Origin: Arenicola marina
Lineage: Eukaryota; Annelida; Polychaeta; Arenicolidae
DNA: 64,000 bases
Reading direction: 5' to 3'
Assembly (NCBI GenBank): GCA_964019135.1
Contig: OZ025257.1
Span: 14,597,971-14,661,970 of the forward strand
The position numbers and the translations under genes are program-made. Of the stretch, positions 49,401 to 63,675 are shown one piece after another (position 1 is the first letter of the stretch; every line of letters begins with the position of its first letter). The notes under the pieces were generated by a model that saw only the letters and a list, made by a program, of their open reading frames with translations, had not been told where the DNA came from and did no database searches.

Positions 49401-52400
49401 ATCGATATGTCTCTGGACGCATTTAACCTCGCGACCCCTTTTTATTGAGCGTGCGCCGTGGCCCTTGGTTACAGGCTGGGGACTACGTGCGCGACGACGT
49501 GGTGTCCTCGCTGATCCAGCTGATCCAGGAGACGAAGGGTCTCCAGGCCTACACGGTCCAGCAGCTGTACCGGGCGGTGCGCGAGGACAACTCCAGGCAG
49601 CCCCTCACCCAGGTGGCCACGTGGTGCATCGGCGAGTACGGCGACCTGCTGCTCTCCGGGACCAACGAGGAGGACGAGCCCATCCATGTAGGTCTGGGGG
49701 TCAGAGGGCAGAGATCAAGTGAGGGGTGAGGGGTCAGAAGTCAGGGTCAGACAGAGGGGATAACTATCTGGGAGAACGATTCGGTTTACATAAGACATTA
49801 TTTTATTCAATAATTCCGGGTAAAGTTGGGATATGGATAATGGCGAGGGGGCATCAGGTCCGGGGTCCGATGGCGAGGAATTTGAGTTAGGGCTCGTGTG
49901 GGGGGTCGGGGGCGGGGGGGAGGGGGGGGGGGGGTACCTGAAGTACAGGTAATACGGTTGGTCAGTTATGTAATGTGGAGGGAGGAGGGGAGACATCTGG
50001 CCCGTTTCGGGCCCGGATAGAGACTTTGGGTAGGACATGGGGGACTATGGTATATTGGCGTCGGCTGCGGACTGACTGTCATTGTTGCCTTCGGGCGGCT
50101 CCAGATTACGGAGGACGAGGTGTTGGAGGTGCTGGAGAGGATCCTGGTCAACAACAACTCGTTGCTAGTGACCAAGGAATACGCCGTGACCGCCGCCGTC
50201 AAGCTGAGCACGAGACTCCAGCAGTCCATACCGTGAGTTACTGCCCCTCCAACCCCCACCCGGCAGTCCATACCGTGAGTTACTGCCCCTCCAACCCCCT
50301 CCCCCACCTGGCAGTCCATACCGTGAGTTACTGCCCCTCCAACCCCCTCCCACCCGGCAGTCCATACCGTGAGTTACTGCCCCTCTAACCCCCACCCGGC
50401 AGTCCATACCGTGAGTTACTGCCCCTCCAACCCCCACCTGGCAGTCCATACCGTGAGTTACTGCCCCTCCAACCCCCACCCGGCAGTCCATACCGTGAGT
50501 TACTGCCCCTCCAACCCCCACCTGGCAGTCTATACCGTGAGTTACTGCCCCTCCAACCCCCACCTGGCAGTCCATACCGTGAGTTACTGCCCCTCCAACC
50601 CCCACCTGGCAGTCCATACCGTGAGTTACTGCCGTTCCAACCTCCATCCCCACCTGGCAGTCCATACCGTGAGTTACTGCCCCTCCAACCCCCACCAGTC
50701 AGCACTCCACACCGTAAATGTGACTGCAGCCAACCCACCCACCCATCACTACCTATCTCACTCCAAAATATATCTTGATTTATGGGTCATAACATTTAAT
50801 GGTACATTTCTGTACAGTATGATGCAATGTGTCTTCCTGTTTGGTGACCTCCAGGGCGGTGCGCCGACTGATCAGCCTGTACGGGACGAGTACAAACGTC
50901 GAGCTTCAGCAGAGATCTGTCGAGTACACTCAGCTCTTCAAGAGCCAGGACTCCATAAGGTATGCTATCAAACAGAAGGTATTCTAACAAACATAGGGTA
51001 TGCTAACAAACATAAGGTAGGCCAGGACTCCATAAGGTATGCTATCAAACGCAAGGTGTACTAACAAACATAGGGTATGCTAACAAACATGAGGTAGGCC
51101 AGGACTCCATAAGGTATGCTATCAAACGCAAGGTGTACTAACAAACATAGGGTATGCTAACAAACATAAGGTATGCTAACAAACATTAGGTATGCTAACA
51201 AACGTTAAGTATGCTAACAAACAAGGTATGCTTTCAAGCGTAAGGTATGCTAACAAACATTAGGTATGCTAACAAACGTTAAGTATGCTAACAAACAAGG
51301 TATGCTAACAAACGTAAGGTATGCTAACAAACATAAGGTATGCTAACAAACATAAGGTATGCTAACGAACAGAAGGTATGCTAACAAACATTAGGTATGC
51401 TAACACGCAGAAGGTGTGGTAACAAACAGAAGTTATGCTAACAAACAAGGTATGCTAACAAGCATAAGGTATGCTAACAAACATAAGGTATGCTAACAAA
51501 CATTAGGTATGCTAACAAACGTTAAGTATGCTAACAAACAAGGTATGCTAACAAACGTAAGGTATGCTAACAAACATAAGGTATGCGAACAAACATAAGG
51601 TATGCTAAGGAACAGAAGGTATTGCTAACAAACATTAGGTATGCTAACAAGCAGAAGGTGTGGTAACAAACAGAAGTTATGCTAACAAACAAGGTATGCT
51701 AACAAACATTAGGTATGCTAACAAACATAAGGTATGCTAACAAACATTAGGTATGCTAACAAGCAGAAGGTGTGGCAACAAACAGAAGTTATGCTAACAA
51801 ACAAGGTATGCTAACAAACGTAAGTTATGCTAACAAACAAGGTATGCTAACAAACATAGGGTATGCTAACAAACAAGGTATGCTAACAAACAAGGTATGC
51901 TAACAAACAAGGTATGCTAACAAACATTAGGTATGCTAACAAACAAGTTATGCTAACAAACAGAAGTTATGCTAACAAACAAGGTATGCTAACAAACAAG
52001 GTATGCTAACAAACAAGGTATGCTAACAAACATTAGGTACACAAACAAACTGCAGTATGGTATCATTTTATTTACTTTAATATTCCATTTGTTTAATTTA
52101 AACATCAGTCGTGGGTTCGCGCCTCCCGTGCTCAATTGGTAAGCGGGCTGGCACCTAAATCTGGGCCAAGTTTCACCCACCCAACCCCTTGTCATTGTCT
52201 CAAGAGGTGTCTTGGCCCAGATGTAACCTTCAATTAGACGAACAAGAACCGCTAAACACAGCGCCATACATGTCTGGTTTGTCCGCAGACCCGGTCTCAT
52301 GGAGCGGATGCCGGTCATCGAGAAGGTGGCCAGCAGCGCCAGCCTGACCAACGGCAGCGCCACCGGGGAGAACGGCGAGCTGGACGAGGACGGGCTCGTC

Positions 52401-61813: not shown

Positions 61814-63675
61814 TCACTTCCACTTCGCACACTCCAAGCAAGCAGAATCCAAATCTGGATACAAATACTTATAGCCAGACTCCACTGTCCTTTGTGGGAG
61901 GACCTTTTGACCTTCAACCATGGCTTTTGCCCTCTCCGCGCCGTATACTCTAGTGAGGACAAACTCCGGAACCGGAAAGAGAGCCGGGCGCCACATCGCG
62001 CGGGCGAAACTTCGAGTGAAGTCGGCGTTCGTTGATTGGACGGGAGCGACGGCGTTCAAGACGCCAGTGACGTCATCACCCTCAATGGCGTGAGTGAAGA
62101 TGCCAGCGACATCATCGGCATGTATCCATGGAAACCACTGTTTTCCACTGGCGATTCGACCGCCCACCCCAAGGAAGAACGGCATGTACAGGTTCTGAAT
62201 CATGCCGCCATCTCGCCCCAGGACCAAACCTGAAACATACGTGAAGGATAATAGAAGCAGGAATTATGCTGAGCCGTCATTCTGGCTAGTTGGTTGGTTA
62301 TTCAGGACGCTTTAACAACTTGTGGTCATATCGCTGTCAATGGGAGAAGGGAGGGAGAGTGGAGCCATGTCTCCGCGGGTACCCCCCTACTCTTTACGAT
62401 GAAAGACATGGGATCTTTATCCTGCGACCACACAGACATGGCCACAGCGGGGCTCGAACCACCGATCCACGTGCCGTGAGGCTCTCAGGTGACCAGAGCA
62501 CTCCATGCGAGCGCTCTAGCCCACTGAGCCGTCATTCTGGACCCAACCGGTTAAGTGTGCCAGTCAACACAATGGTGAAAATAGAACCAGCCTAAATAAG
62601 GTCTCGCATGAAACGAATATACATAACTCGAAATTTCTGGACGTAGGCTTACGTTGGTCACAACTGAGATTGTTTTGTAAACAAAACACGACCCGATGCA
62701 CTTTGATGCAGCCGGGAGTATTTGTAAACCCGATTAGCCTGATACCAATCACAATGCACCTACCTTATGCACGACTACAATTATGATTATTTACATCGTC
62801 TGTTATATAATTTCTAACACGACCCCATGTGTACCTCGCCCTTCCCCCATTACAACCACATGTTTAGTTTTCCAAACCCAAGATGTACCCTATAAACTAC
62901 AGCCACGTTCACTTCACACGATATTTATTACCTATCCTGACGGTGACATGCCTGACGGTACAGTCGCTAGGCAACCGGGCCGCCGCTTCCCAGTCGACGC
63001 ACAGACGAGACAGAAAGTCTGAGCCGTGACTCTCGCTGGACTCGGTGTATTCAGCGGTGGGATCCGGGGGGTAAAATCCTGTCGGGACACAATGATGAAC
63101 GGGACAAGGATATCATATTTATATACGTACAGCTTGAGGCTTGGTGCGTGTGTTTATTTGCCATCAGATGATTATTTAAACTCACTAAGATTTGCTTGGA
63201 TTTGGGCTTTGAGTTGATTGGGGGTATAACGCCATTCTTCACCCTGATAGGATATATCGTGCTGTTCAACATTTGGAACGACTGACGTCAATGACTCAGA
63301 CACTAGGTTTGGAATGGCACAGGACTCACCGACGGCTGACGTCGAAACATGACTCACCGACAACTGACGCCGACACATGACTCACCGACGACTGACGCCG
63401 ACACGTGACTCACCGACGGCTGACGTCGACACATGACTCACCGACGGCTGACGTCGACACATGACTCACCGACGGCTGACGTCGACACATGACTCACCGA
63501 CGGCCGGCGTCGACACATGACTCACCGACAACTGACGCCGACACGTGACTCACCGACGGCTGACGCCGACACCCACACTTTGGGTTTAGTGTCGGCCTGT
63601 GTGATGGCACCCACCATCTGAAGCGTGGTGTCTATGCGACTGGAACGCAAATCCTTCTGAAGCTGCTCGTTCCAT
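61814..63675 (-). CDS. SDR39U1: Epimerase family protein SDR39U1, C-terminal exons (5' part beyond the window)
   Basis: Three exons on the minus strand: 63554-63675, 62932-63078 and 61814-62229 (stop TGA at 61814-61816), with compatible phases (2 in, 1, 1). They read WNEQLQKDLRSSRIDTT..., then FYPPDPTAEYTE... with DWEAAARLP, then GLVLGRDGGMI, QWFPWIHADDVAGI and GVLNAVAP. The end is a DUF1731-type region (EGQKVLPQRT, ESGYKYLYPDL). SDR39U1 is an atypical short-chain dehydrogenase/reductase with predicted NAD(P)-dependent epimerase activity; its substrate is not known to me. The N-terminal Rossmann glycine motif should lie beyond 64000. The gene converges with AP1G1. The donor after exon 63554-63675 is embedded in a minisatellite. 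Confidence 0.93.
62284..62541 (-). mobile_element. tRNA-derived SINE, copy 2 (minus strand)
   Basis: On the minus strand the head reads AGTGGGCTAGAGCGCTCGC (A box region), then GTGGTTCGAGCCCCGC (B box), a body, and the tail AAGCGTCCTGAATAACCAAC. It matches 1967-2212 along its length but is better preserved. It lies in an SDR39U1 intron in the gene's own orientation. Confidence 0.85.
63323..63574 (-). repeat. Donor-spanning minisatellite 4 (28-bp unit, nine copies)
   Basis: Nine 28-bp copies start at 63323 and every 28 bp to 63547 (plus coordinates, word GACTCACCGAC). On the minus strand each is GTGTCGGCGTCAGCCGTCG followed by GTGAGTCA: the last 19 nt of the SDR39U1 exon 63554-63675 plus its 5' splice site. 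The copy at the exon is the real junction and eight decoys lie in the intron. Copies differ by a few transitions. Confidence 0.92.

What the first reader, a model, noticed from the sequence alone, without database searches (positions are those of the whole stretch)
50221..63574. Minisatellites that start inside exons and replicate the 5' splice site, four cases in two genes
Sequence shows four tandem arrays (50221-50715, 50943-52045, 54344-55875, 63323-63574) whose first unit is the last 12-20 nt of a coding exon plus its donor, with all later units in the intron. They have unrelated sequences and unit lengths (42, 18, 65, 28 bp) and occur in two unrelated genes on opposite strands. No array in the window overlaps an acceptor-exon border. 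Chance placement of four arrays exactly on donors is unlikely. It suggests a mechanism tied to the donor (slippage or repair at the exon-intron border, R-loops, or selection for extra U1 sites). I recall a report of splice-site-containing minisatellites at an amphioxus Adh locus, so the class may be partly known; a genome-wide rule would be the new part.
Basis: partly seen in the sequence, partly recalled or inferred. Interest (0 to 1): 0.88.

Follow-up and report, generated by a model that had tools for sequence, protein, structure and literature searches.

The report
Tandem repeats seeded at exon ends
In a stretch of DNA that is probably from amphioxus, four unrelated tandem repeats each copy the end of a coding exon and the splicing signal after it, so one true signal is followed by many identical decoys; such repeats are already known in amphioxus as "mirages", and these four look like new, closely spaced examples.

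Summary
Four arrays (units 42, 19 plus a 77-bp higher-order unit, 64-65 and 28 bp) each begin inside a coding exon, 12, 6 (16 for the higher-order unit), 17 and 19 nt before its end, and repeat the donor downstream. Three exons belong to AP1G1 (+ strand), one to SDR39U1 (- strand). 4 of 24 donors are affected, 0 of 26 acceptors. The class is known: tandem duplications of exon-intron borders in amphioxus genes are called "mirages" (Adh3, globins, troponin C, PGBD5), and an acceptor-side case is published, so a strict donor-only rule is already contradicted. My reading: largely neutral minisatellites founded by a tandem duplication across the donor, tolerated because the intact exon and first donor stay upstream; none of the 64 downstream identical donors keeps the reading frame. 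Selection on extra donors, R-loop-type skew and intron creation were tested and not supported. Under a random-founder null four donors are unlikely (P from under 2e-5 to 2.6e-4; any border up to 3.5e-3), but post hoc on one window; under a looser coverage null they are not (P 0.20-0.31). Whether founding duplications favour donors needs a genome-wide count. No genome, RNA or second species was available.

The parts
50105..50232 (+). AP1G1 exon E14; its last 12 nt are the first unit's exonic part in array 1
50221..50702 (+). array 1: 11 copies of a 42-bp unit holding donor ACC|GTGAGT
50702..50743 (+). decayed extra copy at the distal end of array 1 (32 of 38 aligned positions identical)
50855..50959 (+). 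AP1G1 exon E15; its last 6 nt (16 for the higher-order unit) are repeated
50944..52050 (+). array 2: about 59 copies of a 19-bp unit, 28 of them with the exact donor AAG|GTATGC; 77-bp higher-order heads at 50944, 51021, 51098
54206..54360 (+). AP1G1 exon E19; its last 17 nt are the exonic part of the first unit of array 3
54344..55899 (+). array 3: 24 copies of a 64-65-bp unit, 20 with the exact donor AAG|GTCGGT; the exon copy reads GCAGCAG, all 23 intronic copies GCAACAG
55857..55931 (+). decayed last copy of array 3 (55 of 62 aligned positions identical)
63554..63675 (-). SDR39U1 exon; its last 19 nt are the exonic part of the first unit of array 4
63318..63572 (-). array 4: 9 copies of a 28-bp unit with donor TCG|GTGAGT
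63278..63301 (-). decayed copy distal to array 4 (22 of 24 aligned positions identical)

Best explanation
These are four new cases of the mirage kind: minisatellites founded by a tandem duplication whose unit happened to span an exon end and its donor, then grown by slippage or unequal exchange on the intron side (inferred). Growth inserts copies downstream, so the complete exon and its original donor stay in place (the sequence shows this). A normal protein needs the first donor: none of the 64 downstream identical donors keeps the frame (shown). That the first donor is in fact used is inferred from homology and from published statements on other mirages. The exon copy is held by purifying selection on the protein and, in array 3, has not been homogenised with the rest (shown for the sequence, cause inferred). 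Donor-side arrays are tolerated, and acceptor-side arrays with short units are not, because a duplicated acceptor would offer a usable AG ahead of the true one and insert sequence into the exon (inferred). The extra donors are passengers rather than a function.
For: Exon ends fixed by homology, phase and open frame. Arrays start 6-19 nt inside exons, and the exonic fraction of the unit (12/42, 6/19, 17/64, 19/28) is unremarkable for random breakpoints. 68 identical copies of the four authentic donor 9-mers (11, 28, 20, 9); 0 of the 64 downstream ones leaves an open frame, 63 of 64 being already stopped inside the added stretch or shifted (stops inside in 55 of 56 AP1G1 cases; 8 of 8 SDR39U1 cases not open). 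Of all 273 downstream GT sites in the arrays 5 keep the frame, none a repeated donor. All 23 intronic copies of array 3 differ from the exon copy at one base. Decayed copies lie at the intron-distal end in 3 of 4 arrays, and no unit-like sequence is found in the exon upstream of any array. Published mirages are said to splice normally, and cluster-end copies in globin mirages to escape homogenisation.
Against: No RNA was available, so first-donor use is not shown. Neutral random founding does not by itself explain four donor founders among the 8 arrays of the two-gene span (expected 0.17). The donor 9-mer of array 4 is unchanged in all copies while other positions vary (3 of 28 rotations as low), a weak hint of constraint. 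That the organism is amphioxus was not tested. The donor-acceptor argument rests on one published acceptor-side unit length.
Confidence: 0.62

Rival explanations
1. Donor-directed birth: something about the 5' splice site or exon end (transcription-linked breakage, slippage at the exon-intron composition step) makes founding duplications start there.
For: 4 of the 8 arrays in the two-gene span, and 4 of the 5 array-bearing introns (of 24), are founded on a donor; founder-unit P from 0 of 50,000 to 2.6e-4; two duplication scales at one donor.
Against: Post hoc, one window, three of four in one gene; any-overlap null gives P 0.20-0.31; the other 20 donors show no local duplication (17/24 for the E4a/E4b exon pair, otherwise at most 15/24); an acceptor-side mirage exists in print; coding-strand skew is opposite to R-loops in two arrays.
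Confidence: 0.22
2. Selected decoys: extra donors are kept because they recruit U1 or tune splicing or expression.
For: 68 identical donor 9-mers; donor 9-mer invariant in arrays 1 and 4.
Against: When the 9-mer frame is rotated through the unit, 12/42, 9/19, 50/64 and 3/28 rotations are as conserved or more (insertions not counted, C-tract of array 3 left out); mirage donors do not differ detectably in score from the other 20 (P 0.58).
Confidence: 0.07
3. Intron creation: the array made the intron, as proposed for globins and for tandem duplication of AGGT segments.
For: Published model for amphioxus globins; tandem-duplication intron gain in a potato gene (title and start of abstract only).
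Against: Arrays stop about 150-520 nt before the acceptor. The rest of the intron plus 50 nt of the next exon first scored above shuffles in 3 of 4 cases; with the decayed copies next to the array masked, 0 of 4 do.
Confidence: 0.04
4. Assembly error inflated short repeats into arrays.
For: The globin paper reports one misassembled mirage.
Against: Copies differ in ordered ways (higher-order unit, decayed distal ends), which simple inflation would not give. No reads were available.
Confidence: 0.05

Closest known systems
Amphioxus 'mirages' (Adh3, globins BflGb6 and BflGb9, troponin C, PGBD5)
   Same: Tandem units spanning an exon-intron border in coding genes; unit sizes overlap (10-72 bp stated for Adh3); cluster-end copies not homogenised
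   Different: Two genes not among those named in the passages seen (AP1G1, SDR39U1), all four on donors, up to about 59 copies, one higher-order unit; splicing, polymorphism and somatic instability not tested here
Human IFI6 (6-16) minisatellite with multiple splice donors (Turri et al. 1995; seen only as cited in PMC4526556)
   Same: Minisatellite units each supply a donor
   Different: There downstream repeat units are reported to serve as donors and give isoforms; here downstream donors break the frame
Intron gain by tandem duplication (PMC4974935, seen as a listing with the start of its abstract)
   Same: Tandem duplication across a splice-like site
   Different: No sign here that the array formed the intron

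Membership tests
amphioxus mirage | tandem units span an exon-intron border of a coding gene | tested here: met
amphioxus mirage | found in a cephalochordate | not testable with these tools
amphioxus mirage | end copy excluded from homogenisation | tested here: inconclusive
   Seen in array 3 (0 of 23 intronic copies share the exon base); arrays 1, 2 and 4 give no clear test
amphioxus mirage | mRNA spliced normally | not testable with these tools
   No RNA; open frame and homology are compatible
amphioxus mirage | copy number varies between alleles or tissues | not testable with these tools
   One sequence only
minisatellite supplying alternative donors (IFI6 type) | downstream copies usable as donors in productive mRNA | tested here: not met
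   0 of 64 downstream identical donors keep the frame
intron gained from tandem array | intron body and next exon start derive from the unit | tested here: not met
   0 of 4 above shuffles once decayed copies are masked

The most novel reading that the evidence does not exclude
In this genome minisatellite birth inside genes is coupled to the 5' splice site, so that most intronic minisatellites are founded on exon ends, and each is a natural test in which dozens of identical donors stand in a row and only the first is used.
Probability: 0.2. Interest if true: 0.7.

Novelty: new member of a known kind. Interest (0 to 1): 0.42.

Why it matters
If normal mRNA is made, array 2 alone holds 28 identical donor 9-mers of which only the first can give AP1G1, a stringent natural test of how the spliceosome chooses among equal 5' splice sites. 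A genome-wide count would show whether minisatellites in genes are founded at exon ends more often than chance, which would link transcription or splicing to repeat birth. The four cases also extend mirages to two more genes and show that they can be dense (4 of 24 donors).

Tried and rejected
R-loops: coding-strand GC skew negative in arrays 1 and 3, near zero in 2, positive in 4. Selection on extra donors: rotation test, no consistent signal (for array 3 the C-tract was left out and a few rotations that fell wholly inside it were undefined). Donor strength: mirage donors not detectably different from the other 20 (the matrix of human donor frequencies is recalled from memory and approximate). 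Donor-like motifs as a general property of arrays: 2 of 42 strand-arrays among the 21 other arrays reach the weakest mirage score, against 6% of 3435 random units. Intron origin: not supported. Looser null: any-overlap placement gives P 0.20-0.31 for donors and is reported. Rows dropped: repeats with units under 7 nt (3 of the 44 rows: 5097-5444, 27119-27667, 53115-53320); with 53115-53320 counted, 4 of 6 array-bearing introns are donor-founded. The Adh paper on mirages is not held (one search used a DOI recalled wrongly) and the troponin C paper was not sought; both are known here only through. I saw no genome-wide count in the listings (3 of 3 papers; 15 of 15; 4 of 4; 1 of 1; 12 of 18); one search returned none. 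A search for studies of duplicated 5' splice sites returned none. Passages on amphioxus VCBP and huntingtin genes mention repeats but no border-spanning arrays. Rfam and tRNA scans of the window found nothing.

Full report
WHAT IS THERE. Tandem Repeats Finder returns the four arrays among 44 rows. Wrap-around alignment to the unit gives 50221-50702 (42 bp, 11 copies), 50954-52050 (19 bp, about 59 copies), 54344-55899 (64-65 bp, 24 copies) and 63572-63318 on the minus strand (28 bp, 9 copies). In array 2 a 77-bp higher-order unit with heads at 50944, 51021 and 51098 carries 16 nt of exon, whereas the 19-bp unit carries 6.

THE GENES. Joining 21 of the 23 AP1G1 exons (one of each duplicated pair) gives an open 835-aa gamma-adaptin. 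The best solved match is AP-1 gamma-1 (E 2e-294), ungapped over residues 1-595, which covers the junctions of arrays 1 and 2; the appendage domain matches separately over residues 708-835, which contains the junction of array 3, though that alignment was not printed. The minus-strand gene is SDR39U1 (E 1.2e-69), with no gap near the array 4 junction. Exon ends are therefore fixed by homology, phase and GT-AG, not by RNA. For array 3 a donor 6 nt further on would also keep the frame and cannot be excluded without RNA; it lies in the same unit.

DONORS, NOT ACCEPTORS, HERE. With 24 donors and 26 acceptors defined, 4 arrays cover a donor and 0 an acceptor at TRF score 50 and at 30. An independent self-match of 24-mers across each border finds 4 donors at 23-24 of 24; the next donors are the duplicated-exon pair at 17, then 15; the best acceptor is 17. 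Of 400 random exon-interior positions none reaches 20, while 19% of 400 random AP1G1 intron positions do. By base count 16.6% of intron sequence lies in arrays. Donors (4 of 24, 17%) are thus as array-rich as intron DNA, while exon interiors and acceptors are not. Of 24 introns, 5 hold an array (units of 7 nt or more) and in 4 of these it is founded on the donor; with the 4-bp repeat at 53115-53320 it would be 4 of 6.

CHANCE. Two nulls give different answers. If whole arrays are dropped at random, 2.5-2.9 would touch a donor, P(>=4) is 0.20-0.31, and no acceptor would be touched with P 0.009-0.048. But arrays grow by inserting copies and do not overwrite exon (inference), so the founding unit is the better object: expected donor founders 0.17-0.31, P(>=4) from 0 of 50,000 runs to 2.6e-4, and for any border 8e-5 to 3.5e-3. 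The pattern was seen before it was tested and three arrays are in one gene, so this is suggestive, not proof. Four donors against no acceptor given four borders is only P 0.05.

WHAT THE COPIES CAN DO. The arrays hold 68 identical copies of the four authentic donor 9-mers. None of the 64 downstream copies leaves an open frame: in 55 of 56 AP1G1 cases a stop lies inside the added stretch, in the other the frame shifts, and 0 of 8 SDR39U1 cases is open. Of all 273 downstream GT sites in the arrays 5 keep the frame (three in array 3, two in array 4), none of them a repeated donor. Productive splicing must therefore take the first of many equal donors. The globin paper states that Adh3 data and its own RT-PCR suggest regular splicing of mirages.

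HISTORY IN THE ARRAYS. The exon copy of array 3 differs at one base from all 23 intronic copies, and the intronic base would change Ala to Thr. Decayed copies lie at the intron-distal end of arrays 1, 3 and 4 (32/38, 55/62, 22/24 identical); array 2 shows none, and the exon upstream of each array scores no better than shuffles. This fits an old founding duplication, a first copy frozen by selection on protein, and turnover among the inner copies, as described for globin mirages.

MECHANISMS TESTED. Selection for extra U1 sites: rotating the donor window through the unit gives 12/42, 9/19, 50/64 and 3/28 rotations as conserved or more so; only array 4 hints at constraint. R-loops: skew opposite in two arrays. 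Intron creation: the rest of the intron plus 50 nt of the next exon scored above shuffles in 3 of 4 cases, but in 0 of 4 after the decayed copies beside the arrays were masked. The asymmetry follows from splicing logic (inference): duplication over a donor leaves exon and donor intact upstream, whereas duplication over an acceptor with a short unit places a usable AG before the true one. Consistent with this, the acceptor-side globin mirage has a 150-160 bp unit; this is one case and not a test.

WHAT IS KNOWN. Passages of PMC3087553 and PMC3902484 (section 17) describe mirages in Adh3, globins, troponin C and PGBD5 of amphioxus, on both border types. The Adh paper was not readable. A human minisatellite that supplies donors is cited in PMC4526556 (passages). 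The finding is therefore a set of new members, in two genes not named in those passages, of a known kind; that the organism is amphioxus is inferred.

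Noticed in passing
36842-36938 and 37386-37482; 44652-44750 and 45547-45645: AP1G1 has two pairs of tandemly duplicated exons (22 of 32 and 22 of 33 aa identical); the protein is open with either member of both pairs. The 97-nt exons of the first pair cannot both be included in frame, so mutually exclusive use is likely. 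One search listed 10 of 41 papers and no title was about duplicated AP1G1 exons.
   Followed up: partly
58483-59016: A 38-bp array of about 14 copies 0.7 kb downstream of the AP1G1 stop carries 7 exact GTAAGT motifs on the AP1G1 strand; no donor is expected there unless the 3' UTR is spliced.
   Followed up: partly
53963-53996: A 15-bp repeat of 2.3 copies starts at the fifth base of the intron after AP1G1 exon E18, without including the donor.
   Followed up: no
15361-15987 (minus): Open frame with an integrase core domain (Pfam rva_4, E 2.3e-57), probably a mobile element.
   Followed up: no
11679-12050 (plus): Open frame that looks to me like part of a HECT domain (recalled); Pfam gave no match at E 0.001.
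   Followed up: no
41590-41700, 52110-52165, 62440-62530: Stretches resembling tRNA-derived SINE ends (recalled motif, by eye; ARAGORN finds no tRNA).
   Followed up: no
18271-19624 and 27098-27669: Other large arrays: 117-bp units running into a 319-bp period, and an 11-bp TTCCGGTCCCG-type array.
   Followed up: no
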